The position numbers were made by a program, and so were the translations under genes. Of a stretch of 64,000 nt of DNA, positions 11,758 through 29,229 are shown piece after piece. This DNA is from Methylocystaceae bacterium. GTDB lineage: Bacteria > Pseudomonadota > Alphaproteobacteria > Rhizobiales > Beijerinckiaceae. The notes under the pieces are model-generated. The model was not told where the DNA came from. It saw only the letters and a list, made by a program, of their open reading frames with translations, and searched no databases. How positions within the stretch are numbered: the stretch's first letter is position 1; every line of letters starts with the position of its first letter. The stretch lies in assembly GCA_009773555.1 (NCBI GenBank), contig WSXZ01000012.1, forward strand, positions 1 to 64,000. The letters are read 5' to 3'.

Positions 11758-11905
11758 GAAGAACTCCTTTGCCGATTTCCAAGGCTTCCCACCCTCAATG
11801 ACGCGAGCGCCGCTTCATTGTTATCCGAAGCGGAGTTGTTACTCTGCTGACCGGCGGATGTGACGCCTGCCCCGTGAAGCGGCCAATTTGCGCGAAGGTT
11901 TTGTC

Positions 11906-12701: not shown

Positions 12702-13652
12702 TCAGATGAGGCCCAACTGTCCGGCAGCGTTACGTTGCGCGCGAATCCAGTCGTAGAGCTGCTGCATGCCCGCGCCGGTCTTGGCGGAGACTTCGACGAT
12801 CTCAACATCCGGATTGACGCGGAGAATATTCTCCCTCGCCCGCTCCATCGAAAAATCAAGATGCGGCAGAAGGTCGATCTTGTTGAAGATGACGAGCTTC
12901 GCGGCGCTGAACATATGCGGATATTTGAGCGGCTTGTCTTCGCCTTCGGTCGTCGAAAAGATGACCGCCTTGGCGTGTTCGCCGAGGTCGAACAGCGCCG
13001 GACAGACGAGATTGCCGACATTTTCGATGAACAGGAGCGACCCCACGCTCGGCTTGAGTTCTGAAAGCGCGCGCGCGATCATTTCCGCGTCGAGATGGCA
13101 GCCGGTCCCGGTGTTGACCTGAACCACCGGCGCGCCCGCCGCGCGAATGCGTTCGCCGTCATTCGACGTCGCCTGATCGCCCTCAATGACGAATAGCGGC
13201 AGTTCGCCCGAAAGATCCGCGATGGCGCGCTCCAGCAGCGTCGTCTTTCCGGCGCCGGGCGAGCTGACGAGATTGAGCGCCACAATTTCGCGACCCGCGA
13301 GCCATGCCCGGCACTTGGCGGCGATCGCGTCGTTCTTCGCGAGAATGCGCGTTTCAAGTTCGAGACGCCGGTGGGACTCCTCGTGCGCGTGATCGTGATG
13401 TCCATGATCATGCGCATGCGCGTTGTGGTCGTGCCCGTGCGCATGGCCATGCCCGTGCGCATGATGATCATGCTCATGATGATGCTCATCATCTGCGTGA
13501 TGATGCGCGCCGTGAAAATGACCGTGGTCATGGTCCCCATGTGAATGGGCCGCGCCGTCTTGCTCCGACCCCGCCGCGATCTCAGCGCGTGCGCCGGTCT
13601 GCAGATTGGTCATCGTGGTCCCCTGCCCCTGGCAGCCGCAGCTCGTGCACAT
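12702..13652 (-). CDS. hypB: Hydrogenase nickel incorporation GTPase HypB
   Basis: Supplies nickel to the hydrogenase large subunit, using GTP hydrolysis. The 316-residue protein begins MCTSCGC, the CxxCGC high-affinity nickel site of HypB, followed by a long His-rich stretch (around 30 histidines in roughly 60 residues, about residues 37-100) that likely stores nickel. The GTPase core carries [12 protein letters not shown] (P-loop), EGD, TGxGCHLD with the metal-site Cys-His, ENVGNLVCP and FNKIDL. The ATG at 13652 overlaps the hypA stop by one base (TAATG). It is the last gene of the hydrogenase operon. Confidence 0.95.
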
Positions 13653-13990
13653 TATGCAGCCTCCTCGACTTCGATGCTTTTGATGTTCAGCTCTTCGCCG
13701 CGCAAGCGCTGGAACTGCCGCGATCCGCAAGGACACGCCGAGAGCATGTCGGGCGTGGGAAATTCCCCGCCGCAGACGTCGCAGCGCGCCTTCGCTTCGA
13801 CTTCACGAATATCCAGCGTCGCGTCTTCAACCGGCGTGCCTCGGGCGACTTCCGGAAAGCAGAAGGCCACAGCGTCCGGCTCGACGCCCGACAATGTGCC
13901 GATCTCAATCGTCACGCGGCGCACGCTGCGCCCTTGCGCGGCCTGCGACGCCAATTCGACGATGCTGCAAACGATAGAGAGTTCGTGCAC
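13652..13990 (-). CDS. hypA: Hydrogenase nickel incorporation protein HypA
   Basis: Partner of HypB in nickel insertion. A 112-residue protein starting with GTG: (M)[11 protein letters not shown], the nickel-binding MHE motif. It has the rubredoxin-like zinc site CDVC ... CPC (CDVCGGEF then ACPCGSR) and the EIG[14 protein letters not shown] core. Ten bases separate it from the hypE stop. Length is normal for the family. Confidence 0.95.
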
Positions 13991-14000
13991 GTCGGCTCCT

Positions 14001-15068
14001 TTAGCAGATGCGCGGCAGTTGCTCGCCGACCAGCATGTCGACGATGCGCCGGCCGCCGAAAATCGTGCGCATGGTGACGCGGCCCGGTTCGCCCGCGACG
14101 ACACTACCGATGACCGCCGCCTGTCGGCCCAGCGGATGCGCTCGCATGGCCTCGAGCGCCCGTTCCGCTTCGTCGGGCGGCACGATCGCGACGATCTTGC
14201 CTTCATTGGCCAGATAGAGTGGATCGAGTCCGAGAATTTCACAAAAGCCGCGCACCTCGTCGCGCAGCGGCGTGGCGGCCTCGTCAATTTCGATGGCGAC
14301 CTGAGCGGCTTCAGCGATTTCATTGAGAACGGTCGCCACGCCGCCGCGCGTCGGATCGCGCATGAACCGCGTGTTCGGCGCCGCATTGAGCAAGCTTGCG
14401 ATAAGGCCCTGCAGCGGGGCGCAGTCGCTCTCGATCGGCGACTGCAACGCCATGTCGCCGCGCGCCCCAAGAATGGCCGCGCCGTGATCGCCGAGCAGCC
14501 CGTTGACGAGCACTGCATCGCCCAGCCTTGCGCGATGCGCGCCAAGCTCGACGCCGGCGGCGACGACGCCAACGCCGGTCGTGGTGATGAACATCTGGTC
14601 GCAGGCGCCCTTGTTCACGACCTTGGTGTCGCCGGTGACGATCTTCACACCGGCTTCCTGCGCTGTCGCCGCCATGGACCTTGCGATCTGCCGCAGAAAA
14701 TCGATCGAAACGCCCTCTTCGATGATGACGGCGCAGGAAAGATAGAGCGGGAGCGCGCCGCCAACGGCGAGATCGTTCACCGTGCCGCAGACTGCAAGCT
14801 TGCCGATGTCGCCGCCGGGGAACACGAGTGGATCGACAACGAAGGAGTCGGTCGTGAAGGCCAGTCGGTCGCCATATTGGGCGAGGTCCAGAAGATCGAT
14901 CCGCGCCTGATCGTCGAGCGGCGCCAGCAGTGGGTTGTCGAAGGCTTCGACGAACACGTCATCGACCAAATCCTTCATCGCCTTGCCGCCGCCGCCATGC
15001 GCAAGCGTGACGGTCGGCACATGCACCGTGCCGCGCGAACGCCGGGGTGGGAAGGAGACCATGTTCAT
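14001..15068 (-). CDS. hypE: Carbamoyl-phosphate-dependent cyanide synthesis protein HypE
   Basis: HypE dehydrates the thiocarbamate on its C-terminal Cys to a thiocyanate, donating CN to the active-site iron with HypF and HypCD. The 355-residue protein shows HGGGGKAMKDLV near the N-terminus, FTTDSFVVDPLVFPGGDIG, VTGDTKVV and DPTRGG, and it ends in the diagnostic ...LPRIC, whose terminal Cys is the carrier. The ATG at 15068 overlaps the hypD stop by four bases (ATGA). A second Met follows two codons later. Confidence 0.96.
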   Translation of the reverse strand: MNMVSFPPRRSRGTVHVPTVTLAHGGGGKAMKDLVDDVFVEAFDNPLLAPLDDQARIDLLDLAQYGDRLAFTTDSFVVDPLVFPGGDIGKLAVCGTVNDLAVGGALPLYLSCAVIIEEGVSIDFLRQIARSMAATAQEAGVKIVTGDTKVVNKGACDQMFITTTGVGVVAAGVELGAHRARLGDAVLVNGLLGDHGAAILGARGDMALQSPIESDCAPLQGLIASLLNAAPNTRFMRDPTRGGVATVLNEIAEAAQVAIEIDEAATPLRDEVRGFCEILGLDPLYLANEGKIVAIVPPDEAERALEAMRAHPLGRQAAVIGSVVAGEPGRVTMRTIFGGRRIVDMLVGEQLPRIC

Positions 15069-16210
15069 GCGACGCTCGCCTCCGCTTCGTCGCGTCCCCG
15101 CTTTATGCCGCCATACTGGTAATAGGCCGCGCAAGCGCCCTCGGACGACACCATCAGCGCGCCGAGCGGCGTCTCCGGCGAGCAGGCGCGGCCGAACACT
15201 TTGCACTGCCAAGGCTTGATGACGCCTTTGAGCACCTCACCGCACTGGCAGGATTTGGGATCGGCGATTTTTGCATTGGGCACCGCAAATTTGAGCTCGG
15301 CGTCAAAGCCCCCATAGGCGTCGCGCACTTTGACGCCCGAGTGATCGATCGAGCCGAGCCCGCGCCATTCGAAAAATTCGCGCAGTTCATAGACCTGCGC
15401 GACCGCCTGCAGCGCGACGGCGTTGCCCCCTGCTGGAGCAACGCGCGCATATTGATTTTCAATCTCGCAGCGTCCTTCGTCGATCTGCTTCAGCAACATC
15501 CAGAGCGACTGCAAAATGTCGAGAGGCTCGAATCCGGCGATCACCATCGGCTTTTTGTAGTAGCGCGCGATAAACTCATAAGGCGCATCGCCGATCACCA
15601 TCGAGACATGGCCCGGTCCCAGAAATCCATCGAGGCGCAGGTCCGGACTGTCGAGGATCGCCTTGATCGTCGGAACGATGGTGATGTGATTGCAGAAGAT
15701 CGAAAAGTTTTTGATGCCTTCGCGCTCCGCGTGCAGCACGGTCAACGCCGTCGACGGCATGGTGGTCTCGAAGCCGATGCCGAAGAACACGACCTCGCGC
15801 GCGGGATTCTTACGCGCGAGCGCCAGCGCATCCATCGGCGAATAGACCATGCGCACGTCACAGCCGTCGGCCTTCGCTTGCAGCAGGCTCTTGCGTGAGC
15901 CCGGCACGCGCATAGCGTCGCCGAAGGTGGTGAAGATCACCTCCGCGCGCTCGGCGATGGCGACGCAATCGTCGACGCGTCCCATCGGCAGCACGCAAAC
16001 AGGACAGCCCGGTCCATGCACCAGTTCGATGGACTTCGGCAGCATCCCTTCGACGCCGTAACGGAAGATCGAATGCGTGTGCCCTCCGCAGACTTCCATG
16101 ATCTGCAGCGGGCGACGTTCATCGCGCCCGATTCGCGCAAGCAAGCGCCGGATATCCTTGACCAGAACATCGGCCTTCGTACGATCGCGAAATTCGTCGA
16201 CATATCTCAT
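15065..16210 (-). CDS. hypD: Hydrogenase iron-cyanide assembly protein HypD
   Basis: HypD carries a [4Fe-4S] cluster and, with HypC, holds the Fe(CN)2CO unit being built. The 381-residue protein starts MRYVDEFRD and shows EVCGGHTHSIFRYG, HGPGCPVCV, GFETT and the C-terminal cysteine cluster CQCGEVLKGVIKPWQCKVFG, all expected. The ATG at 16210 overlaps the stop of the upstream SIS gene by four bases. Confidence 0.96.
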   Translation of the reverse strand: MRYVDEFRDRTKADVLVKDIRRLLARIGRDERRPLQIMEVCGGHTHSIFRYGVEGMLPKSIELVHGPGCPVCVLPMGRVDDCVAIAERAEVIFTTFGDAMRVPGSRKSLLQAKADGCDVRMVYSPMDALALARKNPAREVVFFGIGFETTMPSTALTVLHAEREGIKNFSIFCNHITIVPTIKAILDSPDLRLDGFLGPGHVSMVIGDAPYEFIARYYKKPMVIAGFEPLDILQSLWMLLKQIDEGRCEIENQYARVAPAGGNAVALQAVAQVYELREFFEWRGLGSIDHSGVKVRDAYGGFDAELKFAVPNAKIADPKSCQCGEVLKGVIKPWQCKVFGRACSPETPLGALMVSSEGACAAYYQYGGIKRGRDEAEASVA

Positions 16211-16896
16211 GCCGCGACGTCCTTGCTTATGGCCGAGCCGCGGTCGTCGGCGAGCAGCGTGTGTACGAGATCCCAGAGTATGTGATAGGCGGCGACGTGA
16301 CACTCCTGGATGCGGTGGACTGACGTCGTGGGCACGACAAGGCAATGATCGCAGATCCCGGACGCCATCCTGCCGCCGTCGCCGCCGCTAAAGCCAATGG
16401 TCGTCAGACCCATCTCCCTCGCCTTCACGAAGGCGGCGATCAGATTTGCCGAATTGCCGCTGGTGGAGAGGCCGATAAGCCCGTCTCCCGCCCGGCCATG
16501 AGCGATGATCTGGCGCACGAAAATGTGCTCGAAGCCGATGTCATTGCCGACCGCGGACGTCATCGCCACGTCGGCGGTGAGATTGATCGCTGCGAGCGCC
16601 GGCCGGCCCGCGGTGATCGGATGGAGGAACTCGACGGCCACATGCGAAGCGTCGCAGCTCGATCCGCCGTTGCCCATGGTGAACATCCGGCCGCCGCGCC
16701 GATATACGCCCGCAAGCGCCTTCGCCGCGTCGAGCAGGACGGGCGCCTGCTCGCCGAAAAATCTCGTGCTGGTCTCGCGCGACTCGCGCGCTTTCTCTTC
16801 AATCGAATGTAGCAACCCAGCATCGACGGCGGCGGGATCCTGCTCCTTGCCATGCAGGAACGGATAAAGGACCTCCAATGCGCTCTTGCTGGTCAT
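16207..16896 (-). CDS. GmhA-like SIS-domain phosphosugar isomerase between hypC and hypD
   Basis: A 229-residue SIS protein resembling sedoheptulose-7-phosphate isomerase GmhA: GNGGSSCDASHVAVEF, VGNDIGFEHIF, GLSTSGNSANL and a C-terminal RIQECHVAAYH helix that keeps the Gln and last His of the GmhA active site (RIQExHxxxxH). The residue before this motif is His rather than the Asp of E. coli GmhA, so activity on heptose is not assured. It overlaps hypD by four bases and lies seven bases or less from hypC, embedded in the hyp genes. No lipopolysaccharide genes are near. I recall SIS genes in the same place in other high-affinity hydrogenase clusters; its role in maturation is unknown. Confidence 0.8.
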   Translation of the reverse strand: MTSKSALEVLYPFLHGKEQDPAAVDAGLLHSIEEKARESRETSTRFFGEQAPVLLDAAKALAGVYRRGGRMFTMGNGGSSCDASHVAVEFLHPITAGRPALAAINLTADVAMTSAVGNDIGFEHIFVRQIIAHGRAGDGLIGLSTSGNSANLIAAFVKAREMGLTTIGFSGGDGGRMASGICDHCLVVPTTSVHRIQECHVAAYHILWDLVHTLLADDRGSAISKDVAA

Positions 16897-16900
16897 GATC

Positions 16901-17197
16901 CTATTCCTCCGCCGCGACTGCGTCGGTGAGCGTTTGCATCGTCTCAAGTTCGGCTTGGAGTTCGCCAAGCTCTTGAAGCAATCTGAGCGTCTCCGCCGCC
17001 TCCGCCGCGTTGATCCTGCTCATCGCGAAACCGACATGGACGAGAACCCAGTCGCCGACGCAGGACTCCACAGGATGCGCTTCATCCACGATGCAGCTGA
17101 TGTTGATCTGACGACGCACCCCGCTCACGTCAACGGTCGCGACGAGATCGTCGGCATTGTCTATGCTAACGATGCAGCCGGGGATGCCGAGGCACAT
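16901..17197 (-). CDS. hypC: Hydrogenase assembly chaperone HypC
   Basis: Small chaperone (98 residues) that binds HypD and delivers the Fe(CN)2CO unit to the large subunit. It starts MCLGIPG, giving the essential N-terminal Cys2, and contains GDWVLVHVGFAMSRI, the family core. The C-terminal 30 residues form a Leu/Glu-rich helix. Its first 37 bases overlap the 3' end of hypF in another frame. AGGAATAGG near its end serves as ribosome site for the SIS gene. Confidence 0.93.
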   Translation of the reverse strand: MCLGIPGCIVSIDNADDLVATVDVSGVRRQINISCIVDEAHPVESCVGDWVLVHVGFAMSRINAAEAAETLRLLQELGELQAELETMQTLTDAVAAEE

Positions 17198-19560
17198 GCG
17201 CCGTCCTTTCCATCTCTTGTCATGTCGGTTCTCATCAGATGCGCGGCGCCGATGGCGGCCTGACCCAGCGAGAGCCCGCCATCATTGGCGGGCGCGTCAG
17301 CATGTGTGAGCACCGTGAAGCCAGCCTCGTACAAACCCTCGTAGACGTTTTCGAAAAGCAGGCGATTTTGAAAGCAGCCGCCCGATAGCGCCACCGTTTC
17401 AAATCGTCGCGCAGCCGCCAGCCGCACGGCGACTTCAGTGATTGACTGCGCCAGACCGAGGTGAAAACGGCGCGCAATGGTCTGCGCCGAAACGCCCTGC
17501 CGCAGATCCTCGAGAATTGTGCGCCACATCGGCGCCGCGTCGATGTCGATGAGCTCGGACTCGGAAATCCTCAGCGCATAGCCGCGCGTCTCGTTTGGCG
17601 CCGCGGCCGCGAGAGCCTCAAGTCGCGCCCCGGCTTCGCCTTCGTAGGCCTGACGGTCGGCGCAAACGCCGATCGCGGCGGCGACCGCATCGAAGAGCCG
17701 TCCGCAAGAGGAGGCTAATGGCGAATTGAGGCCTTGGGCGATCATCCGGTCGATCGTCGCAAGCGGTTTGCCCTCCAGGGCGCGCCAATCGCCCGGCGCA
17801 GAAGGCGTCGCTTCGAACGCGCTTGCGGCCCTAAGATGCGCATAAAGATTGCGCCACGGTTCGCGCACCGCCTGAGCGCCGCCGGGCATGGCGACCGGCT
17901 TCAACCGCGCCAGCCGCTCATAGCCAAGATAGTCGGCGAGCAGGAACTCTCCGCCCCATATCGCCCCGTCATCGCCAAAGCCCAATCCGTCGAGCACGAT
18001 CCCGAGCGCTGGCGGCGCATGGAGCGGCCGGCCGTTCTCAGCAAGGCAGGCGGCGACATGTGCGTGATGGTGTTGAACGTCAATCAGCGGCAAGGCCCGT
18101 GTGTCGGCCTCTGCGCGTCCGAGTTTCGACGACAGATATTCAGGATGCCGGTCGACGACGATCGCCGACGGCGCATGATCAAACAGGCTCCGAAAGAGCG
18201 CCAGATTCTTTTTATAGTCGTCCAACGTCGCCGCGTTCTCGAGATCGCCCTGATGCTGCGACAAGATCGCCTGACCGTCCTTGACCAGGCAGAAGGTCGC
18301 CTTCAGCTCCCCGCCCATCGCCAACAGGTCGGGCGCCTTCTCGAAGCCGCCCGGCAACCGCAGCGGCGCAGGCGCGTAGCCGCGGGCGCGGCGAAGAACC
18401 CTCGGCCGCCCGTTCATAACTCGCACAACCGAGTCGTCAACGCGATTGGCGATGGCGCGATTATGCGTCAATGCGAAGGAGGCGATTTCGGCAAGCTGTC
18501 GGCACGCCGCCGCGTCATCGACGACGGCGGGTTCGTCCGAGATATTGCCGCTCGTCATGACCAGCGGATGTTCGAACCGCTCCATCAACAGCAAATGCAG
18601 CGGCGTCGTCGGCAACATAAAGCCGAGCGTGTCGAGTCCGGGCGCGACGGCCTCGGGCAGGCGGTCAGGACCAGTCGCACGCAACAGCACGATCGGCGCT
18701 TCAACGCTCGTGAGCGCGCGCTCCTCGACGGCGTCGAGTGCGCAGTAGCGCCGAATGACGGCCAGATCGCGCGCCATCAGCGCGAAGGGCTTTGCGTCAC
18801 GACGCTTCAATCGCCGCAGGCGCGAGACGGCTGCAAGGTTGGTTGCATCGCATGCGAGATGATAGCCGCCCAGTCCCTTGACCGCGATGATCTCGCCTTG
18901 CGCGATAAGACGCGCTGCAATTTCGACCGCATCGGCGCCGCCGTCGCGCGGCGCTTCCGCTTGGCCTAACGCAACGAGCGACGCAGTCGGCCCGCAGGAC
19001 GGGCAGGCCACCGCTTCAGCGTGAAAACGGCGATCGATCGGATTGCGATATTCCGCCTCACAGGCCGCACACAGCTCGAATGGCGCCATCGTGGTCGTCG
19101 CGCGGTCGTAAGGAATGGCCGTCACAATGCTGAGGCGCGGTCCGCAATGGGTGCAGTTGGTGAATGGATAGCGATAGCGGCGTTCGTTTGGATCGCGCAG
19201 CTCCGCCGCGCATGCGCCGCAGAGCGCCGCATCCGGCGCGACCTGGGTGCGTGCGGGTCCGCCGATGCTTTCGGCGATTCGGAACTCCTGTGGCAGTTCG
19301 CCGCTGTAGCGCAGCCTTTCGATGCTGTCGATATGCGCGAGCGGCGGCGGGTCTCGTTCGATTCGTCGAAGCAGCGCAGCGACGCGCGACGGGTCGCCGC
19401 TGACGCGCAATAGTACGCCCTCGCCGTCATTGAGCACCTCGCCGGCAAGCCCCAATTCACGCGCCATGCGCCAGACAGCCGGACGAAAGCCGACCCCCTG
19501 CACACGCCCGCGCACCCGAAATTCGAGCGCCTGCGATGGCTCTACCGCCGCAAAACTCAT
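17161..19560 (-). CDS. hypF: Carbamoyltransferase HypF
   Basis: Uses carbamoyl phosphate and ATP to carbamoylate the C-terminal Cys of HypE. The 799-residue protein has an acylphosphatase domain (VRGRVQGVGFRPAVWR), two zinc-finger motifs (CGAC...CTHCGPR and CAAC...CPSCGP), a YrdC-like domain (GEIIAVKGLGGYHLACDAT, LTSGNISDEP) and a Kae1-like carbamoyltransferase domain with HHHAHVAACLAENG and ALSGGCFQN. The ATG at 19560 is chosen because the protein then begins just before the acylphosphatase domain; the upstream extension overlaps a separate small gene. The 3' end overlaps hypC by 37 bases, an unusually long overlap. Confidence 0.95.
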   Translation of the reverse strand: MSFAAVEPSQALEFRVRGRVQGVGFRPAVWRMARELGLAGEVLNDGEGVLLRVSGDPSRVAALLRRIERDPPPLAHIDSIERLRYSGELPQEFRIAESIGGPARTQVAPDAALCGACAAELRDPNERRYRYPFTNCTHCGPRLSIVTAIPYDRATTTMAPFELCAACEAEYRNPIDRRFHAEAVACPSCGPTASLVALGQAEAPRDGGADAVEIAARLIAQGEIIAVKGLGGYHLACDATNLAAVSRLRRLKRRDAKPFALMARDLAVIRRYCALDAVEERALTSVEAPIVLLRATGPDRLPEAVAPGLDTLGFMLPTTPLHLLLMERFEHPLVMTSGNISDEPAVVDDAAACRQLAEIASFALTHNRAIANRVDDSVVRVMNGRPRVLRRARGYAPAPLRLPGGFEKAPDLLAMGGELKATFCLVKDGQAILSQHQGDLENAATLDDYKKNLALFRSLFDHAPSAIVVDRHPEYLSSKLGRAEADTRALPLIDVQHHHAHVAACLAENGRPLHAPPALGIVLDGLGFGDDGAIWGGEFLLADYLGYERLARLKPVAMPGGAQAVREPWRNLYAHLRAASAFEATPSAPGDWRALEGKPLATIDRMIAQGLNSPLASSCGRLFDAVAAAIGVCADRQAYEGEAGARLEALAAAAPNETRGYALRISESELIDIDAAPMWRTILEDLRQGVSAQTIARRFHLGLAQSITEVAVRLAAARRFETVALSGGCFQNRLLFENVYEGLYEAGFTVLTHADAPANDGGLSLGQAAIGAAHLMRTDMTRDGKDGACASASPAASLA

Positions 19561-19574
19561 GATCGCTGTCGGCC

Positions 19575-19682
19575 TCACATGTTGCTGATCTTGATATAGC
19601 GATAGAGGTCCTTCGCATTCATGATCAGCAGTCCGAGGATGATAAGCCCCAGGACGATGCCTGTAATCTCCCATCCGCTCAT
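19575..19682 (-). CDS. Small (35-residue) single-helix membrane protein in hydrogenase operon
   Basis: A 35-codon frame starting ATG at 19682 with GGAGAAA seven to eight bases upstream. The product begins MSGWEITGIVLGLIILGLLI, a single membrane helix, followed by a basic-aromatic tail KDLYRYIKISNM. It lies between the maturation protease and hypF with 14 and 49 bases to its neighbours, all in one direction. I recall short proteins of this shape (DUF6893) beside actinobacterial group 1h hydrogenases; that link is from memory. It could tether the otherwise soluble hydrogenase to the membrane or its electron acceptor, which is inference. Confidence 0.7.
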   Translation of the reverse strand: MSGWEITGIVLGLIILGLLIMNAKDLYRYIKISNM

Positions 19683-19731
19683 GACATTTCTCCATTTACC
19701 GGATGCGCGGCGCGAGCGCGATCGCGTTATG

Positions 19732-20220
19732 TTACGCCGCCATCATCTCCTCAATCAGCTCTTCGACGGTCTCCGCAGCGACGCCGACCGCCGCCGCGAC
19801 AGGCTCGCTCAGCTCCATGACGCCTTCGTCGCCGCCGAAGGTCAACGGCTCGCAGGCGACCAGCAGGACGCGGCGGCAATTTCCGCCGAGCGCCGACGCC
19901 AGACGAAGAACTTTCGCGGGATCGAGCTCATGCGGCGAAAGAGACAGATCCTCCCGTGCCGGATTCTCTATCTCAACCGGATCCGGCTCCACGACCGAGA
20001 CGACGCCCGGCGCTTCCCCCCGCTGCGCCGCATCGACGAGAATAACGGCGTCATAGCCGTCCATCAGCGCGTAAGTGAGATCGATCCCGCGAATGCCGAA
20101 ATCAATCACTCGCGCGCCGTCCGGCAGCTTGGCCTGTGATAGCCTGCGCGCCACCTCTACTCCGAAGGCGTCATCGCCGTTAAAGATGTTGCCCACGCAG
20201 GCGACGAGGATCGAGGTCAT
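19732..20220 (-). CDS. Hydrogenase maturation protease (HyaD/HupD family)
   Basis: Endopeptidase that removes the C-terminal extension of the [NiFe] large subunit after nickel insertion. The 162-residue protein has the family's nickel-sensing pattern: GNIFNGDDAFGVEVA near the start (Asp-rich turn replacing the common GNxLxxDDG), DFGIRGIDL, and DAAQRGEAPGVV, followed by SLSPHELDP with the metal-binding His. The ATG overlaps the preceding gene's stop by four bases. Its substrate here should be hhyL, which retains a 25-residue tail after its last ligand. Confidence 0.9.
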   Translation of the reverse strand: MTSILVACVGNIFNGDDAFGVEVARRLSQAKLPDGARVIDFGIRGIDLTYALMDGYDAVILVDAAQRGEAPGVVSVVEPDPVEIENPAREDLSLSPHELDPAKVLRLASALGGNCRRVLLVACEPLTFGGDEGVMELSEPVAAAVGVAAETVEELIEEMMAA

Positions 20221-21575
20221 GGTCCGTCTCCCACAGCAATCGGCTCGATCTCCTCCTGGCTGAAAAAGAAACGATGTCCGGGAAAGCCCGCCGCGCCGAG
20301 ATCCCGGCCCGGATCGTCGATCAACGTCACCGCGACATGGATCCTGTCCTCGAAATCGCGCTCGATCGCCTCGACGACGGCGATCTTGTCTTTGAGCGCG
20401 ATATCCATGATGTCGCCGCCCGATTTTGGGCGTAGTCGCACGCGGGCGCCGACGCATAGACTGCGTCCGCTCTCCAGCAGCGAGACGAGGCGAAGCTTCT
20501 CTTGATCCCTGCCCGTCGGCGGCGGTTCAATCTGGCTGGCCTGAGAGGGGTGATCGCGCATGACGCCATGGAGCCGCGCCATGTCTTCGGCGGTCAATGC
20601 ATGCGTGCGCTCCAGAAGCGCGCGCGCACGGGCGTCGACGGACGCCATCTCGCGTTTCTCGGCGTCGGTCATCGCGAGAATACGAAGCGTCAGGATTTCA
20701 TCGATCTCAGTGCCGTCGAAGAGGTCGCCAGGACTTTCGGGCGCGATCGCCGGATGATCATAGAGGATGATCGGCGAAGCGAGCATGGCGTTATTGTCCT
20801 GACCGCCAACCAGCACAGGAAAGGCGCCGACATTTCGGCACTCCCCGGCAGCCTCACGCAGATCGTCCGGAGGATCTAGCAACGAAATGAATGCGCCATC
20901 TTCAACGGTGAGGATCGCATGCGTCGAGGCGAAAGCGCGAAGTTGCGCCGCTGCGCGTTCCTCACGAACCGCGCCGGCAAGCGGCGTGACGTTCTCGATC
21001 GCAATCGTCAGCTTCCACACATCAGGCGACAGCTTCTGCGCCTTCGCTTCGACCACGCCTTGGATCGTTTGAGACGTGCGAATGAGAGCGGCGACGATGC
21101 GACCGCTCCGATCTCGGACTGGCTCGAATTCGCGCGCGCCTTTGAAGCAAAACGGCGTCACGCTGGCGGCGCCTTGAACATCGGCGGGCCGCAGCGGCCC
21201 TAAGCCGATCTCCCGTTCGATCGCCTCCTCCCAGGCCAGCAACTCCCGATCGTCGACATGAAGGCTCGGAACGCGCGTGAGCGCCGGTTCGCCTTCGTCC
21301 GGAAGCTCTTGCGCCGGCGTCGCCAGCTGTCCGACCTCGCGCGTCATGACCTGCAGGAATCGAAAATGGACGTTGAACGCCGCCTGCTCTCCGCCCCGCA
21401 AGAGAACCTGCGTCTCCATGCGCGAGGCGTCGCCCTGCCGATCGAACGCCTTCGGAAAGACGCCGCCGAACGTCCAGCGCTGACGATTTTTTATCGACGA
21501 TGGCCGATAGGGATAAAGGATATAGCCCTCGTAAAGAACCGCGTTGGCGATCGCTCTGACGGAGTCGAGTTTCAT
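20217..21575 (-). CDS. Conserved hydrogenase-cluster protein of unknown function (452 residues)
   Basis: I do not recognise a named family. The sequence begins MKLDSVRAIANAVLYEGYILYPYRPS and contains NRQRWTFGGVFP, FRFLQVMTREV and, near the C-terminus, a short beta-rich domain (VRLRPKSGGDIMDIALKDKIAVVE ... HRFFFSQEEIEPI, here shortened) of about 90 residues. There is no signal peptide, membrane helix or conserved Cys cluster, so it is cytoplasmic. It overlaps both neighbours by four bases in the order hhyL, NifU-like, DUF5947, DUF6084, this gene, protease, which suggests a dedicated assembly or electron-transfer role for this hydrogenase type. Large homologues in the same place in actinobacterial clusters are recalled, not checked. 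Confidence 0.65.
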   Translation of the reverse strand: MKLDSVRAIANAVLYEGYILYPYRPSSIKNRQRWTFGGVFPKAFDRQGDASRMETQVLLRGGEQAAFNVHFRFLQVMTREVGQLATPAQELPDEGEPALTRVPSLHVDDRELLAWEEAIEREIGLGPLRPADVQGAASVTPFCFKGAREFEPVRDRSGRIVAALIRTSQTIQGVVEAKAQKLSPDVWKLTIAIENVTPLAGAVREERAAAQLRAFASTHAILTVEDGAFISLLDPPDDLREAAGECRNVGAFPVLVGGQDNNAMLASPIILYDHPAIAPESPGDLFDGTEIDEILTLRILAMTDAEKREMASVDARARALLERTHALTAEDMARLHGVMRDHPSQASQIEPPPTGRDQEKLRLVSLLESGRSLCVGARVRLRPKSGGDIMDIALKDKIAVVEAIERDFEDRIHVAVTLIDDPGRDLGAAGFPGHRFFFSQEEIEPIAVGDGP

Positions 21576-22219
21576 GTCGCCTCCGCTGCGTTCGCTTCGA
21601 GTAGCGCCTGCAAGGCGCGTTCAAATGTCGGAAGTCCTTGCCGGCGCCGGTAACGGTCCAGCTCCTCAAAAGCGTCGCGATGCAGGCAGAGCCACATGCT
21701 CTGCGGATAGTAGTGCTCCATCATCGCGCGCCATACGCTCAAGGGCAGGCGATACGTGCATTCCTTGCTCCAGGCGACTTGCTCGATCTGCAACCTGCCT
21801 TCGCTGTCGCGGTAGAAAATAGAACCGCTGAACAGAAAGTTGAGCGGAACGTCGCCCTGCTCCAAACCATGAAAATATTTGGTCGCTGCAATGTTGAAGT
21901 CATAGCTGCAAGGCGCCGGCAGATCGACGATGCGCTCAGCGTCGACGGCGGGAACGGAAACGCTCGCATGCGTCCAAAGGAAACTCCGCATCGTCTCGCC
22001 CCAGCGCGACGGGTGACCGAAGAGATCGGAAAGCCGATCATGCTCATCGCCGTCATAGCGCCGCCGCGCAGGATCGATGCGAATTTGGCAGTTCAACATC
22101 ACGTTGAGAATGGGCAGATCCGGCGTCTTGTTTACGACATGCAGCGCAAACAGCAGCAGCGGCGCGGCCGAATATTTCTCGACTTTGACGTCTTCGATGC
22201 GAAAGTCGAGATCAACCAT
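21572..22219 (-). CDS. DUF6084-like hydrogenase-cluster protein
   Basis: A 215-residue protein with the opening MVDLDFRIEDVKVEKYSAAP and later NVMLNCQIRIDPARRRY, LWTHASVSVP, YDFNIAATKYFHGL, FLFSGSIFY and WSKECTYRLP. I recall this as the DUF6084 family, found beside high-affinity hydrogenases of actinobacteria. The predicted fold is mostly beta, with no membrane segment. A role in maturation or electron transfer is inferred from its fixed position between the large subunit and the hyp genes. Overlaps with neighbours are four bases downstream and eight upstream. Confidence 0.65.
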   Translation of the reverse strand: MVDLDFRIEDVKVEKYSAAPLLLFALHVVNKTPDLPILNVMLNCQIRIDPARRRYDGDEHDRLSDLFGHPSRWGETMRSFLWTHASVSVPAVDAERIVDLPAPCSYDFNIAATKYFHGLEQGDVPLNFLFSGSIFYRDSEGRLQIEQVAWSKECTYRLPLSVWRAMMEHYYPQSMWLCLHRDAFEELDRYRRRQGLPTFERALQALLEANAAEAT

Positions 22220-22835
22220 GAACCCTGTCCTTCGTCTCGACGTCGTCCCGCAGGTTCGTAAAATAGTCGCGAACAGCCTCCCAGACCTCTGCGCCGCCAG
22301 ACAATCCCCGCCAATGCCTTCGGATCAGCCCGACGAGCGCATAGCAGCGATCAATCGAAACGAGATAGTATTCCCGTGCGCCATTCATTCGATTGACGAG
22401 CAACGCCTCAACGTCCGGATCAAGGTCGGCCAGCATCGCATTGGCCGCGATTAGTCGCGACCAGCCGTCGGCGGCAAAGGGAGACTCGATCGCTCCGGCC
22501 GGACCTGGATAGATCGCCACGGGCCCCTGCGCCGGCGTGCTGTGGAACACGAAGGCGAGATCAATCGGAATACGAAAGCCCTGCCAATCGTCGTCGCTCA
22601 GATTGAAATCGTCAAGCGCATCAGCGCGCGCCCGCAAGGCGGCAAACCGCTCACTCCCGCCCAAGAGGAACGCACATTGGGGACAAGCGCAAAAGAATTT
22701 TCGCGTCGCGCGCTCCACCAAATGCGCGTGCCGGGAAGCGATGGCCTTCGAGCAGAATTCGCAATGCTCTTCTTCCGTCGCGCTCACGAAGCGCCGCAGT
22801 CGCGACGCCCAATTCCCCGATTCTATTCTTTCCAT
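22212..22835 (-). CDS. DUF5947-like zinc-site protein of the hydrogenase cluster
   Basis: A 207-residue protein with four cysteines near the N-terminus: CEFC at about residues 25-28 and CACPQC about 25 residues later, after H-rich spacing (ASRHAHLVE). This is a likely zinc or iron-sulfur site. The middle reads GFRIPIDLAFVFHST and YPGPAGAIESP, and near the end are LLVNR and EYYLVSIDRCYALVGLIRRHW. I recall this as DUF5947, a companion of group 1h hydrogenases. Function unknown. If it binds a metal it could donate or receive electrons or act as a chaperone for the small subunit; this is speculation from context. Confidence 0.65.
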   Translation of the reverse strand: MERIESGNWASRLRRFVSATEEEHCEFCSKAIASRHAHLVERATRKFFCACPQCAFLLGGSERFAALRARADALDDFNLSDDDWQGFRIPIDLAFVFHSTPAQGPVAIYPGPAGAIESPFAADGWSRLIAANAMLADLDPDVEALLVNRMNGAREYYLVSIDRCYALVGLIRRHWRGLSGGAEVWEAVRDYFTNLRDDVETKDRVHG

Positions 22836-22856
22836 GCTCTCGCGCCTCTTTACTTT

Positions 22857-23378
22857 CTAGGCGGCGGTCTCGGTGTAAAGGGCTGTCATGTCCATTTCGA
22901 TCAAAATATCGTCGAGGTCGGGCGCCGCGTCGGTGAGAGCGTTCTCGATCTCCAGCCGCAACTGGTCGGTAGGCTCAGCAACGCCATTCCTTTGCAACTG
23001 AACCATTGCAAAGGCTTTACTCGCGCTCACGAGGCTCACATGGAGGCCGCGTGCGCTCCACTGCGGCTGCATGCGCGCGATGACATCCAGTAGACGATTC
23101 TCCACGCTCTGCGGATGTAGCCCGTGGAGGAGCAATATTGCCCGAAGGTCCCGATCCTCGACGATCTTCTCGAGTAAGGCGGCGCCATTGTCCGATGCCG
23201 CAATGATCGCACTGAGCCGCGCCAGCGAACGGGCGTGCAAATCGAGCAGGAGCGCCAGCAACTCGCGCGCCGCCTCCCGCCCCGTCCCGTCCGCGATCTC
23301 TTCAAGCGCGGCCATTAGCTTCTCTAGCCGGGCCAGAGACTGCTCCAGCGTCTCCGTCCCGCGCGCCTCTCCACTCAT
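22857..23378 (-). CDS. NifU-like protein lacking cysteines
   Basis: A 173-residue protein. Residues 1-80 form a helical domain; residues about 95-165 align by eye with the C-terminal NifU domain that holds an Fe-S cluster, with the pattern RLLDVIARMQPQWSARG (for the usual VRPxLxxDGG) and LRLEIENALTDAAPDLDDI (for the helix after CxxC). The CxxC is replaced by sequence around NGVAEP, and there is no cysteine anywhere in the protein. It therefore cannot bind a cluster by itself. It overlaps the hhyL stop by four bases. NifU-family genes are recalled next to group 1h hydrogenases in other bacteria. Confidence 0.65.
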   Translation of the reverse strand: MSGEARGTETLEQSLARLEKLMAALEEIADGTGREAARELLALLLDLHARSLARLSAIIAASDNGAALLEKIVEDRDLRAILLLHGLHPQSVENRLLDVIARMQPQWSARGLHVSLVSASKAFAMVQLQRNGVAEPTDQLRLEIENALTDAAPDLDDILIEMDMTALYTETAA

Positions 23379-25195
23379 GGCTGCTGCTTTCGCGACGCGC
23401 CGAACATGGGCGAATGCGTGGTCTTAACGGTCTTGCCGCCGCCCACATACATGTGAACGCCGCATGGCAGACAGGGATCGAAACTGCGCACCGCGCGCAT
23501 GATGTCGATGCCCTTAAACTTGTCCGGACCATTCTCTTCGAAGATCGGCGTGTTCTGGACCGCGTCCTCGTAGGGGCCCGGCGTTCCGAAATCGTCTCGC
23601 GGCGTCGCGTTCCACGGCGTCGGCGGATAGGGATGGTAATTGGCGATTTTCTTGTCTCTTATGACGAGATGGTGTGACAGCACGCCGCGCACCGCTTCAT
23701 GGAAGCCACAGCCGATCGCCTCGCCCGGCACTTCGAATGGCGTAAACGTCTTTGTGCGGCCCGCCTGAATCTCTGTGAAGGCCTGCTCCAAAAAGTAATA
23801 TGCCGCCGCGGCGCAATAGGCTTGAAAATAGGTGCGCGCCCGATCGCGTTCGATCGCGTTGCTCCACTTTGGGACCTTCCATTCAAACTCCACCGCAGGT
23901 TTGAGCGCCGTCTTCGGGAGATTGATCTTCACGCTGTCGCCCGTCGCTTTGACATAGCCGTTCATGTCGACGAGCCCTGCCAGCGCCGTCGAGAACAGGC
24001 GCGCGAAGGCGCCTCCGCCGGTGTCGAGCGGCAGATGATCTCCGCTGCTCTTGTCTAGCCAGCGCGGACACATGACCCAGGAATAGTTCTTGTCGAAGTC
24101 GCGCTTCTGCGGCCGCGGGATGGTCGTCTGATTCCACGGATGCTTCTGATCGACCGGATTGCCCAGCGGGTCCGTCTTGACGAAGGTTTCGCAATTGTCC
24201 CAGTCTTCGTAATAGGACTGACCACGCAGGATGCGAATCTGCAGATTGATGTCGACGAGGTCGGTCGTGACAAGCTTGCCGTCGACGACAACGCCTGGAG
24301 TGACGAACATTTTGCGACCCCAGTCGGTCATATGCTTATAATTGTAGTCGCAATGGTTTGGATCCTGAAACGCGCCCCAGCATCCGAGTAGAATTCTTCT
24401 GCGTCCAACCTCCTCGTAACCCGGCAGCGCTTCATAAAAAAAGTCGAACAGATCATCGTGCAGCGGCACGCATTTTTTCATGAACTCGGCGTAGCGCACG
24501 AGTCGCGTCAGATATTCGGTGAAGAGCTGGTTCGACGGCACGGTGCCGACGCCGCCCGGATAAAGAGTGGAGGGATGCACATGGCGCCCCTCCATCAGGC
24601 TGAACATCTCACGCGTGTAGCGGCTGACAATCAATGTCTCACGGTAGAATTCGCCGGAAAATGGATTGAGCGCGGTCATGATGTCGGCGATCGTTCGATA
24701 GCCATGAGCGTCCGAGTTTCGAGCGGTCGTGCGTTGCGCCTTTACCCAGACGCTTGGATTGGTTTCCTTGACCATCTGCTCGCAGAAATCGACCCCGACG
24801 AGATTGTCCTGAAAGATGTTGTGGTCGAACATATATTCCGCGGCTTCGCCGAGATTGATGATCCAGTCGGCGAGCGGCGGCGGCTTGACGCCATAGGCCA
24901 TATTCTGCGCATAGACCGAACACGTCGCGTGATTGTCGCCGCAGATTCCGCAAATGCGACTGGTGATGAAGTGGGAATCGCGGGGATCTTTGCCCTTCAT
25001 GAAAATGCTGTAGCCACGAAAGATCGACGACGTGCTGTGACATTCGGCGACTCGCCGATTCTCGAAATCAATCTTTGTAAAAATTCCGAGACTTCCGACG
25101 ATTCGGGTAATCGGATCCCAATTCATCTCGACGAGATTGGGCGACGCTTTATTGGGGCTCGGAGGCGCCGAAGGACGGGTTGCAAGGTCGACCAT
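23375..25195 (-). CDS. hhyL: [NiFe]-hydrogenase large subunit, group 1h-like
   Basis: Catalytic subunit that oxidises H2. The 606-residue protein carries the four nickel-binding cysteines: Cys82 and Cys85 in SRICGICGDNHATCS, and Cys575 and Cys578 in FDPCLPCGVHMY. The wording of both motifs (CGDNHATCS; DPCLPCGVHMYVGGG) is what I know from the high-affinity 'group 5'/1h enzymes of Streptomyces and Ralstonia. After His581 there is a 25-residue tail, the expected substrate of the maturation protease encoded downstream. No signal peptide, so the protein matures in the cytoplasm. It is 15 bases downstream of hhyS. Confidence 0.92.
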   Translation of the reverse strand: MVDLATRPSAPPSPNKASPNLVEMNWDPITRIVGSLGIFTKIDFENRRVAECHSTSSIFRGYSIFMKGKDPRDSHFITSRICGICGDNHATCSVYAQNMAYGVKPPPLADWIINLGEAAEYMFDHNIFQDNLVGVDFCEQMVKETNPSVWVKAQRTTARNSDAHGYRTIADIMTALNPFSGEFYRETLIVSRYTREMFSLMEGRHVHPSTLYPGGVGTVPSNQLFTEYLTRLVRYAEFMKKCVPLHDDLFDFFYEALPGYEEVGRRRILLGCWGAFQDPNHCDYNYKHMTDWGRKMFVTPGVVVDGKLVTTDLVDINLQIRILRGQSYYEDWDNCETFVKTDPLGNPVDQKHPWNQTTIPRPQKRDFDKNYSWVMCPRWLDKSSGDHLPLDTGGGAFARLFSTALAGLVDMNGYVKATGDSVKINLPKTALKPAVEFEWKVPKWSNAIERDRARTYFQAYCAAAAYYFLEQAFTEIQAGRTKTFTPFEVPGEAIGCGFHEAVRGVLSHHLVIRDKKIANYHPYPPTPWNATPRDDFGTPGPYEDAVQNTPIFEENGPDKFKGIDIMRAVRSFDPCLPCGVHMYVGGGKTVKTTHSPMFGASRKQQP

Positions 25196-25210
25196 GGTCG
25201 CGATCCTTAA

Positions 25211-26296
25211 CTAGAGTGGATGAGTCTTGTTCGGCCGATCTGGCTCATAACCCGTGGTGTAGGTCGGCTCCCTGTTGCGCCACTTCGGCTCCTTGTTGAG
25301 CGTGTGATTGGTGATTTTCCGCAGATTGCGGATCAGCACGCCGTAAGGCTTAATCAGAACCGATGAAATGCGGGCGCCGGGCGGTTCGTCCATGAACGGC
25401 ATGAACTTGTCGGGAAAGCCCGGCATGGTGCAGCCGATGCAGATGCCGCCGACATTGGGGCACCCTCCCAGACCCGCGATCCAGCCGCGCTTGGGCACGT
25501 TGCATTGAACGACCGGGCCCCAGCAGCCGATCTTCACCAGGCACTTCCGCGAGCCATATTCTTGCGCGAAATCGGCCTCTTCGTAGTAAGCGGCGCGGTC
25601 ACATCCCTCATGAACGGTGGGACCAAACAGCCAGCGCGGGCGGCCAAGTCTGTCGACGGGAATCATTGGCGCCAGACCGGCGAGTTGGCGCAGCAGGTAG
25701 AGGAATGTCTCCATGAAATTGTCTGGCTGGACAGGACAGCCCGGGACATTGACGATTGGCAGACCGGCCTTCGATTTCCACTCGGCGCCAAGATAGTCCT
25801 GAAGGCCCATGCAGCCCGTAGGATTGCCCTTCATTGCATGAATGCCGCCGTATGTGGCGCAGGTGCCGGCGCCGATTACGGCAAGCGCCTTTGGAGCCAA
25901 GCGGTCGATCCATTCGGTGGTTTTAATCGGCTGTCCGGTCGCCGCATCCGTCCCAATCGCCGCCCAATACCCATCGCCGCTCAGCTTCTCGTTCGGGATG
26001 GAGCCTTCGACCACAAGGACGAAGTTTTCGAGTTCGCCCCGCGCGCCTCGATGGAAGGCCTTCATAAAGTCATCGCCCACTTCGTAGGAGAGGACTGCAT
26101 TGTGCAAGCGCACCTTCGGCAGGCCGGGGATCGCTCCGAGGATGACGTCCTCTATGCTCGGTTCGCTCGCGGCGGTGATTGAGACCGAGTCGCCGTCGCA
26201 ACTCAGTCCCGCCGTAAGCCAGAGCACGTCAAGCTCTTCGATCGTGGATGGAGGCCGCTCTTTTCCTTTGGGAACTGGATTGGGGTCTGGAGCCAT
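25211..26296 (-). CDS. hhyS: [NiFe]-hydrogenase small subunit, group 1h-like
   Basis: Electron-transfer subunit with three Fe-S clusters. The 361-residue protein has no twin-arginine signal: it starts MAPDPNPVPKGKERPPS, so the enzyme is not exported. The proximal-cluster motif reads GLSCDGDS: Cys33 is kept, but the second Cys of the usual CxxC is Asp36. With GTCATYGG and GCPVQPDN the cluster would have three Cys and one Asp ligands, as reported for the O2-tolerant actinobacterial-type enzyme of Ralstonia eutropha. Further ligands for the other clusters are HEGCDR, KCLVKIGCWGP, QCNVP and GGCPNVGGICIGCTMPGFPD. No cytochrome b subunit gene is nearby. Confidence 0.92.
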   Translation of the reverse strand: MAPDPNPVPKGKERPPSTIEELDVLWLTAGLSCDGDSVSITAASEPSIEDVILGAIPGLPKVRLHNAVLSYEVGDDFMKAFHRGARGELENFVLVVEGSIPNEKLSGDGYWAAIGTDAATGQPIKTTEWIDRLAPKALAVIGAGTCATYGGIHAMKGNPTGCMGLQDYLGAEWKSKAGLPIVNVPGCPVQPDNFMETFLYLLRQLAGLAPMIPVDRLGRPRWLFGPTVHEGCDRAAYYEEADFAQEYGSRKCLVKIGCWGPVVQCNVPKRGWIAGLGGCPNVGGICIGCTMPGFPDKFMPFMDEPPGARISSVLIKPYGVLIRNLRKITNHTLNKEPKWRNREPTYTTGYEPDRPNKTHPL

Positions 26297-26641
26297 CGGT
26301 CAATCCTTTCACCAAAAGACCTGGCGACGGAAAGTCTGCACCGGGAGCAACCTGCTCGGCTTGCGCTTCTATTGGCTGCGAGCGACGCAGCCATGCCGGC
26401 GCGCGGCGGCATACAGGCCTGTCACGGCCGAAGGAAAACTCTGGAACTTGAGAAATGTTCCTAGGAGGGAACAAAATCACTGCGCGTACGATCGAGAGCG
26501 CGGGAGCGATTTTCATTTTTGGACGCGGGTCGATCCTACCCATCGAGACGGCGAGAGCGCGACTGAAGCGCCCTCGGAAGCGCCCGACAGAGCTGAGCTG
26601 ACGCTGCCTTAACTGACGCAGCGTCGCACTCCAGCTTGAGC
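26297..26641. other. Intergenic region upstream of the hydrogenase operon
   Basis: About 345 bases between the porin stop and hhyS start, both on the minus strand. No gene is supported. It contains a GGAAC-N17-GTT motif (26437-26461, minus strand) described separately and must hold the promoter for the hydrogenase operon. No sigma-54 (GG-N10-GC) element was recognised. Confidence 0.6.
26437..26461 (-). promoter_or_regulatory. Possible EcfG (general stress sigma) promoter upstream of hhyS
   Basis: On the minus strand GGAAC at 26461-26457 is followed after 17 bases by GTT at 26439-26437. This fits the alphaproteobacterial EcfG consensus GGAAC-N16/17-CGTT, except that the base before GTT is A instead of C. 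It is about 140 bases upstream of the hhyS start. The overlapping plus-strand text GGAAC-N9-GTTCC is also an inverted repeat, so an operator is an alternative reading. Chance occurrence cannot be excluded. Confidence 0.35.
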
Positions 26642-29146: not shown

Positions 29147-29202
29147 CGACTTTTGTCCCGTATCGCTTAACCCGGACTCCGGTTGGCGCTCTGATCGACG
29201 GA

Positions 29203-29229
29203 CCGATATGTAAACCGTGTACATATCGG
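29203..29229. promoter_or_regulatory. 27-base palindrome upstream of porin gene (candidate operator)
   Basis: CCGATATGT and ACATATCGG form perfect nine-base arms around the nine-base spacer AAACCGTGT. It lies 57 bases upstream of the porin ATG, where a dimeric regulator would bind. No regulator gene is adjacent and the motif does not match one I know. Confidence 0.5.

What the first reader, a model, noticed from the sequence alone, without database searches (positions are those of the whole stretch)
12702..26296. Complete group 1h-like high-affinity [NiFe]-hydrogenase operon in an alphaproteobacterium
Fifteen minus-strand genes, mostly with 1-37-base overlaps, form one block with structural subunits, protease, NifU-like, three conserved unknowns, a small membrane protein, and all hyp genes, plus a SIS gene. 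This is the enzyme type linked to growth on atmospheric H2 in other bacteria. The full set with the extra proteins suggests a self-contained, possibly transferred module.
Basis: partly seen in the sequence, partly recalled or inferred. Interest (0 to 1): 0.75.

Follow-up and report, generated by a model that had tools for sequence, protein, structure and literature searches.

The report
Methanotroph operon for burning trace hydrogen
This is a complete set of genes that a methane-eating bacterium probably uses to scavenge hydrogen gas from air; the same genes are already known in very close relatives, so it is ordinary, though two of its small helper proteins look worth testing.

Summary
Fifteen minus-strand genes (12702-26296) form one block: hhyS, hhyL, a NifU-like gene, DUF5947, DUF6084, an unnamed 452-aa protein, a protease, a 35-aa membrane protein, hypF, hypC, SIS, hypDEAB. 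It is a group 1h [NiFe]-hydrogenase: exact group 1h motifs, best solved match 5aa5 (Ralstonia eutropha HofKG), same gene order as pHG1. The genome is a Methylocystis near M. rosea SV97 (HhyL 98% identical). SV97 oxidises H2 below atmospheric level and raises Hhy on air (PMC11519548, passages), so kind, host and probable role are in print. High affinity is not guaranteed: the R. eutropha enzyme is low-affinity, and Methylocystis B8 (same two hydrogenase types) showed no H2 use. Recent transfer is not supported for this copy.

Two points go further. (1) The NifU-like HhyE, essential and proposed as an iron-sulfur protein in mycobacteria, has no cysteine here; none of the 28 proteobacterial copies compared shows the CxxC, whereas DUF5947 keeps a C5H2 motif in 77 of 77. 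(2) The 35-aa membrane protein (DUF6893-like, often unannotated) sits beside the protease in 66 of 72 loci across six phyla and is a candidate for the missing membrane anchor of group 1h enzymes.

The parts
25211..26296 (-). hhyS, small subunit (361 aa); CDGD at residues 33-36; no twin-arginine motif found in the first 60 residues
   Evidence: Pfam Oxidored_q6 and NiFe_hyd_SSU_C; 627 bits to HofK 5aa5_A
23375..25195 (-). hhyL, large subunit (606 aa); L1 TSRICGICGDNH at 78, L2 SFDPCLPCGVH at 571, then a C-terminal extension
22857..23378 (-). hhyE-like, NifU-like protein (173 aa) without any cysteine
   Evidence: CC-only HhyE model hits it at E 1.7e-32; AlphaFold model matches NifU-like 2z51, Foldseek prob 1.00, E 4.8e-3; no Cys
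22212..22835 (-). DUF5947 protein (207 aa) with C25 C28 H36 H38 C49 C51 C54
   Evidence: PF19372 E 6e-61; the seven residues invariant in 45 of 45 aligned
21572..22219 (-). DUF6084 protein (215 aa)
   Evidence: PF19562 E 8.6e-85
20217..21575 (-). conserved 452-aa protein of unknown function, no Pfam or NCBIfam match
   Evidence: relatives in 76 of 84 loci
19732..20220 (-). hydrogenase maturation protease (162 aa)
   Evidence: PF01750 and TIGR00072; start
19575..19682 (-). 35-aa single-helix membrane protein, DUF6893-like
   Evidence: PF21833 E 0.0039, 17.6 bits, below the 24.6 cut-off; model built from non-proteobacterial copies finds it at E 2e-5
17161..19560 (-). hypF (799 aa)
   Evidence: TIGR00143 E 1.7e-236; start
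16901..17197 (-). hypC (98 aa)
   Evidence: PF01455
16207..16896 (-). SIS-domain protein, GmhA-like (229 aa)
   Evidence: PF13580; TIGR00441 E 3.4e-44 but below its cut-off
15065..16210 (-). hypD (381 aa)
   Evidence: tblastn against relatives; annotated hypD in the same place of pHG1
14001..15068 (-). hypE (355 aa)
   Evidence: tblastn against relatives; pHG1 order
13652..13990 (-). hypA (112 aa, GTG start)
   Evidence: start; pHG1 order
12702..13652 (-). hypB with histidine-rich N-terminal region (316 aa)
   Evidence: sequence; start; pHG1 order

Best explanation
The block is a complete group 1h (Hhy) [NiFe]-hydrogenase operon of a Methylocystis methanotroph. HhyL splits H2 at a Ni-Fe centre. 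Electrons pass through the Fe-S clusters of HhyS and enter the aerobic respiratory chain at the inner face of the membrane. HypA-F and the protease build and release the active large subunit. HhyE, DUF5947, DUF6084, the 452-aa protein and the 35-aa membrane protein assemble or connect the enzyme. Its most likely use is to take up trace or atmospheric H2 when methane is scarce. Shown here: genes, motifs, kinship, gene order, cysteine-free HhyE. Shown elsewhere for close relatives: H2 uptake below atmospheric level and Hhy induction on air. Inferred: single transcript, activity in this strain, electron route, roles of the accessory proteins.
For: L1 and L2 exact; 5aa5 HofG/HofK best by far; HhyL tree; gene order as on pHG1; M. 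rosea SV97 HhyL 98% identical and SV97 oxidises H2 below atmospheric level with Hhy raised on air (PMC11519548, passages); M. bryophila, Methylocapsa aurea and 'Methylosinus acidophilus' carry group 1h clusters and oxidise H2, and in M. bryophila lifting the CH4 limitation lowers group 1h transcripts (PMC12319191, passages). PF00374 finds in this genome only the group 1h gene, a second large-subunit-like gene (3b-like by its neighbours, my reading) and a sub-cut-off match; SV97 has the same pattern.
Against: No activity or transcript data for this strain. Methylocystis B8 (HhyL 94%, only 1h and 3b) showed no H2 use and produced H2 (PMC7716213). The R. eutropha enzyme is low-affinity and that strain cannot use atmospheric H2 (PMC7174314). 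PMC12566213 says that in Methylocystis evidence for H2 as an energy source was exclusive to SC2, where 1d and 2b, not 1h, rose with H2. No mutant links Hhy to H2 uptake in SV97 in the passages I saw. pmoA was not found in this draft genome although 6 of 6 relatives searched have it.
Confidence: 0.85

Rival explanations
1. A group 1h enzyme of low affinity, like the cytoplasmic one of R. eutropha, used for recycling or redox balance rather than for atmospheric H2.
For: Same gene order and same CxxC-less HhyE as pHG1; R. eutropha Km 3.6 uM (PMC5364354); B8 showed no H2 use.
Against: SV97, with a 98% identical HhyL and also a cysteine-free HhyE, takes H2 below atmospheric level, and the PF00374 search shows no other group 1 or 2 enzyme in SV97.
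Confidence: 0.2
2. A recently acquired foreign module.
For: Patchy in the genus (18 of 39) and rare in the order (HhyL at E<=1e-100 in 2 of 297, the other at 44% identity); plasmid copies elsewhere; GC slightly lower than the rest of the window.
Against: Same flanks in SV97 and B8; HhyL of Pseudomonadota form one group (94% SH-aLRT); GC difference under 1 point; no tRNA in the window. I did not search for integrases or other mobility genes.
Confidence: 0.1
3. The locus is decaying and no longer makes active enzyme.
For: Eroded copies occur in G027, G028 and G032.
Against: All fifteen frames are open here and both active-site motifs are intact.
Confidence: 0.03

Closest known systems
Methylocystis rosea SV97 Hhy operon (L007)
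   Same: HhyL 98% identical, all fourteen larger genes and the 35-aa gene present, cysteine-free HhyE
   Different: Different species; physiology measured there, not here (PMC11519548)
R. eutropha H16 hof operon on pHG1, structure 5aa5
   Same: Gene order from small subunit to hypB identical; HhyL 84.1% identical; HhyE without CxxC; DUF6893-like ORF present but not annotated
   Different: Plasmid-borne beta-proteobacterial; purified enzyme low-affinity (PMC5364354)
M. parvus OBBP pMpar-2 cluster (L099)
   Same: Same gene families except that the 35-aa ORF is not annotated there; HhyL 86.4% identical
   Different: Rearranged: hypF, SIS, hypD, hypE, hypB lie on the opposite strand
Mycobacterium HhyE, MSMEG_2718 (from PMC6883350 passages)
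   Same: Homologous NifU-like protein encoded next to hhyL
   Different: That protein carries a CxxC plus a C-terminal domain with two CxxC motifs; here there is no cysteine and no C-terminal domain

Membership tests
group 1h [NiFe]-hydrogenase (Hhy) | L1 TSRICGICGDNH and L2 SFDPCLPCGVH (as given in PMC5364354) | tested here: met
   Both exact; exact L1 in 83 and L2 in 85 of 87 tree rows, in neither outgroup row
group 1h [NiFe]-hydrogenase (Hhy) | HhyL clusters with group 1h, not 1d or 2 | tested here: met
   Quick tree of 87 rows with HoxG and HoxC as outgroup; the comparison rows came from a search with this HhyL, and HofG (L098) is the only one of them with a structure-backed identity
group 1h [NiFe]-hydrogenase (Hhy) | Small subunit with 3 Cys + Asp around the proximal cluster, no Tat signal | tested here: met
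   CDGD aligned with 5aa5 HofK; no RR motif found in residues 1-60. Cluster ligation itself not tested
group 1h [NiFe]-hydrogenase (Hhy) | Uptake of H2 at atmospheric concentration | not testable with these tools
   Published for SV97 (PMC11519548), not for this strain
HhyE (NifU-type Fe-S protein of group 1h operons) | Position after hhyL and NifU-like domain | tested here: met
   Overlaps hhyL by 4 nt; E 1.7e-32 to a model of CxxC-bearing HhyE; NifU-like fold
HhyE (NifU-type Fe-S protein of group 1h operons) | CxxC in the NifU domain | tested here: not met
   No cysteine in the protein; CxxC seen in 25 of 78 homologues compared
HhyE (NifU-type Fe-S protein of group 1h operons) | C-terminal domain with two CxxC | tested here: not met
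   173 aa, no such domain; present in 13 of 78 homologues, all of them CxxC-bearing
DUF6893 (PF21833) | Score over Pfam's cut-off | tested here: not met
   17.6 bits against 24.6 for the window copy; four copies from other loci score 37.9-53.3. Filed as DUF6893-like on shared tail, place and own model

The most novel reading that the evidence does not exclude
Group 1h hydrogenases do not need an iron-sulfur HhyE. In Proteobacteria HhyE is a cysteine-free scaffold; the conserved metal centre of the accessory set is DUF5947 (invariant C5H2 motif), and the DUF6893 microprotein, one helix with a basic tail ending in Met, is the membrane anchor that holds the otherwise soluble enzyme at the quinone pool and so sets its high apparent affinity.
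Probability: 0.25. Interest if true: 0.65.

Novelty: new member of a known kind. Interest (0 to 1): 0.3.

Why it matters
The operon itself only adds one more Methylocystis to a documented group of methanotrophs that may live partly on trace H2. What could matter are two details that bear on an open question stated in PMC7174314 (passages): the enzyme has no membrane anchor and no signal peptide, yet it works at the membrane and loses affinity when detached, and its redox partner is unknown. A conserved one-helix microprotein in the operon and a HhyE that lacks cysteines in a lineage able to use atmospheric H2 make that question directly testable by simple deletions.

Tried and rejected
Homology of the C-terminal cysteine domain of long HhyE with DUF5947: rejected, no significant profile match (best E 0.2). 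The best blastp matches there involve the C-terminal part of DUF5947 and one HhyE only (E 3.7e-5, L084).

A solved relative for DUF5947: none by profile at E<=0.01 (best E 0.21) and none by Foldseek at E<=0.001 (best 0.25). The second structure library was not available.

Empty-site test: the two flanking genes lie apart in several hhy-lacking Methylocystis, so no clean empty site could be shown. The joint seen in G032 and G028 is a deletion scar, not an empty site.

Stops inside HhyL reported for three genomes of another genus: in my own alignment of these loci no stop lies inside the aligned part, which ends at residue 602; I read the reported TAG as the natural stop.

My first regular expression for the HhyE C-terminal domain was faulty (1 of 25) and was replaced by a count of late cysteines (13 of 25).

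One sigma-70-like site in 26200-26800 lies on the wrong strand for this operon.

Rows dropped: L024 was left out of the CxxC counts because its frame shifts there; its other frame shows no CxxC either. L067 was dropped from the HhyE alignment for in-frame stops, and other near-identical or incomplete rows were not put into A1 and A2: 43 rows used for HhyE, 45 for DUF5947. The 6 loci without a NifU-like hit (L040, L050, L066, L077, L082, L101) are not in the HhyE counts.

Full report
What is there. The window lies in contig C140 of a 4.0-Mb draft genome. Fifteen minus-strand genes fill 12702-26296: hhyS, hhyL, a NifU-like gene, DUF5947, DUF6084, a 452-aa gene, a protease, a 35-aa membrane ORF, hypF, hypC, SIS, hypD, hypE, hypA, hypB. 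Eight of 14 junctions overlap by 1-37 nt and six have gaps of 4-49 nt. A porin-like gene (26642-29224) lies upstream on the same strand and tblastn finds it in only 3 of 84 related loci, so I do not count it as part of the operon.

Which organism. HhyL is 98% identical to those of Methylocystis sp. L43, M. rosea SV97, a Methylocystis bin and M. silviterrae. The coordinates of the SV97 hit (L007) coincide with those of genome G009, which the genome tool places in the window's genus. The genome is therefore a Methylocystis. pmoA (PF02461) was not found in it, while 6 of 6 relatives searched have it. I take this as an assembly gap, since SV97 carries pmoA copies of equal score that short reads would collapse; this is inference.

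Which enzyme. HhyL carries TSRICGICGDNH and SFDPCLPCGVH exactly, the motifs that PMC5364354 gives for group 1h (passages). phmmer gives 1163 bits to the large subunit of 5aa5 (R. eutropha HofG) and at most 161 to any other chain. The small subunit gives 627 bits to HofK and keeps the CDGD stretch. A quick tree of 87 rows sets the 85 HhyL rows apart from HoxG (group 1d) and HoxC (group 2b) of pHG1 and puts the window beside L43 and SV97. The rows were gathered with this HhyL, so the tree tests 1h against 1d and 2b, not against every subgroup; and it is a quick tree with 31 open forks.

How common. At 86% identity or more, 18 of 39 Methylocystis genomes have HhyL (one of them a partial match), and a further one has a 67-residue fragment. 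In the family the figure is 18 of 298 sampled genomes, in 3 of 43 genera, and in the order 2 of 297, the other one at 44% identity. DUF5947 occurs in exactly the same 18 of 39 genomes and in 1 of 297 of the order, the window's own.

What it does. PMC11519548 (passages) reports that M. [quoted passage not shown] PF00374 finds in SV97 the group 1h gene, a second gene of the kind also seen here (450-460-aa frame) and one weak match below the cut-off. I read the second gene as group 3b from its neighbours in L003; B8 (G020 by coinciding coordinates) is reported to have only 1h/5 and 3b. Thus the group 1h enzyme is the best candidate for trace H2 uptake in SV97 and, by 98% identity, here. Against this: B8 showed no H2 use and made H2 instead (PMC7716213), R. 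eutropha's enzyme has Km 3.6 uM (PMC5364354) and that strain cannot use atmospheric H2 (PMC7174314), and in SC2 it was the 1d and 2b enzymes that rose with H2 (PMC12566213).

HhyE without cysteines. PMC6883350 (passages) reports that deleting hhyE stops Hhy activity in M. smegmatis and that HhyE proteins carry a CxxC in a NifU domain and two more CxxC in a C-terminal domain; it also mentions truncated forms that keep the NifU-like domain only, and says that 9.5% of hydrogenase-positive species lack both HucE and HhyE. The window's protein has no cysteine. A model built from 25 CxxC-bearing HhyE still hits it at E 1.7e-32 over residues 7-162, and its AlphaFold model (mean pLDDT 88.8) matches the NifU-like protein 2z51 with Foldseek probability 1.00, though at E 4.8e-3 and with cation-transporter domains close behind. 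Among 78 homologues, 25 have the CxxC, 21 keep one cysteine and 32 have neither in that place. Of the 28 proteobacterial rows 27 have none; the 28th (L024) is frameshifted there and shows no CxxC in the other frame. One unassigned genome (L065) that falls inside the proteobacterial group of the tree does have it. On the tree the trait changes at least nine times. The C-terminal cysteine domain occurs in 13 of 78, all CxxC-bearing. SV97 is among the 22 of 78 without any cysteine. If its trace H2 uptake is due to Hhy, then an Fe-S cluster in HhyE is not needed for it. PMC12319191 (passages) already noted that the NifU domain 'appears to be absent' in the M. bryophila protein; I saw no statement of a general cysteine loss in the passages and listings. 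What stays constant in HhyE is elsewhere: L84, L87, H88, P89, R95, E145 and P153 in 43 of 43.

DUF5947. The motif C-x2-C, two His, C-x-C-x2-C is present in 77 of 77 homologues found in 84 loci, and all seven residues are invariant in 45 of 45 aligned. The AlphaFold model is confident (mean pLDDT 88.9), but Foldseek finds no solved relative at E<=0.001. It is the best candidate for a metal site among the accessory proteins; which metal and what role are unknown. The term DUF5947 occurs in no paper of the library.

The 35-aa protein. It scores 17.6 bits against Pfam DUF6893, below the cut-off of 24.6. A model trained only on 29 non-proteobacterial copies finds it at E 2e-5. Of 72 loci with the protease gene and at least 250 nt behind it, 66 have such an ORF beside it at E<0.1 (60 of them at E<1e-3): Pseudomonadota 27 of 27, Acidobacteriota 18 of 23, Verrucomicrobiota 7 of 7, Chloroflexota 6 of 6, Actinomycetota 5 of 5, Planctomycetota 2 of 3, unassigned 1 of 1. 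The training copies are among these 72, so the proteobacterial rows are the independent part. In two more loci the best hit lies elsewhere, one is weak and three have none. The best control hit among 21,041 ORFs (reversed loci plus the pHG1 hox region) was E 0.32. All 63 sequences with E<1e-3 (window included) end in Met just before the stop, and 62 have a hydrophobic stretch long enough for a helix. It is not annotated on pHG1 or pMpar-2; note that the plasmid gene tables used there are incomplete. In Methylocystis it occurs in 21 of 39 genomes: the 18 with HhyL, the one with the fragment, and two (G028, G032) whose structural genes are deleted while hyp genes remain. Those two weaken a strict link with HhyL. 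PMC7174314 states that Hyd-1h has no membrane anchor yet is membrane-associated, that its affinity falls when detached, and that SolV lacks the homologous hypothetical proteins and has two other membrane proteins in its operon (passages). In the group 2a enzyme HucM makes the link to the membrane (PMC10017518, passages). I therefore propose that the DUF6893-like protein is the anchor. This is inference. That R. [quoted passage not shown] The term DUF6893 occurs in no paper of the library, and a search for hhyL with small membrane or transmembrane proteins (passages of PMC11018855 and PMC4767420) showed none that names it.

Verdict. The finding is correct and ordinary: a new member of a known kind in a genus where it has been reported. 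The accessory proteins are the part worth a follow-up.

Noticed in passing
L103 2249-8981 (G032) and L104 9320-15928 (G028): Two Methylocystis genomes keep hypFCDEAB and the DUF6893-like ORF but have lost hhyS, hhyL, hhyE, DUF5947, DUF6084 and most of the protease; a protease remnant lies next to a FabH-like gene that in the window sits at 34352-35335, and SIS is reduced to fragments.
   Followed up: partly
G027 contig C36 16573-16940: A 67-residue HhyL fragment is followed about 60 nt later by the DUF6893-like ORF; DUF5947 is absent from this genome: another eroded copy.
   Followed up: no
window genome G000: No pmoA (PF02461) match in the draft, while 6 of 6 other Methylocystis genomes searched have one to three.
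   Followed up: partly
window 26642-29224: Upstream porin-like gene reads as an alginate-export domain fused to an OMP beta-barrel domain; tblastn finds it in only three of the 84 loci, all Methylocystis.
   Followed up: no
window 5068-12679, plus strand: Transglutaminase/DUF2126 amidoligase, circularly permuted ATP-grasp/Alpha-E protein and a second transglutaminase form a cluster next to the operon; the 263-aa gene at 11888-12679 has lower GC (50.9%) and no Pfam match.
   Followed up: no
L068 4903-5103 and L028 5868-5987: DUF6893-like ORFs that lie away from the protease gene in two Acidobacteriota loci.
   Followed up: no
SIS gene, window 16207-16896: A SIS gene lies between hypC and hypD here, and in 28 of the 49 loci where all three were found; its role in hydrogenase maturation is unclear.
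   Followed up: partly
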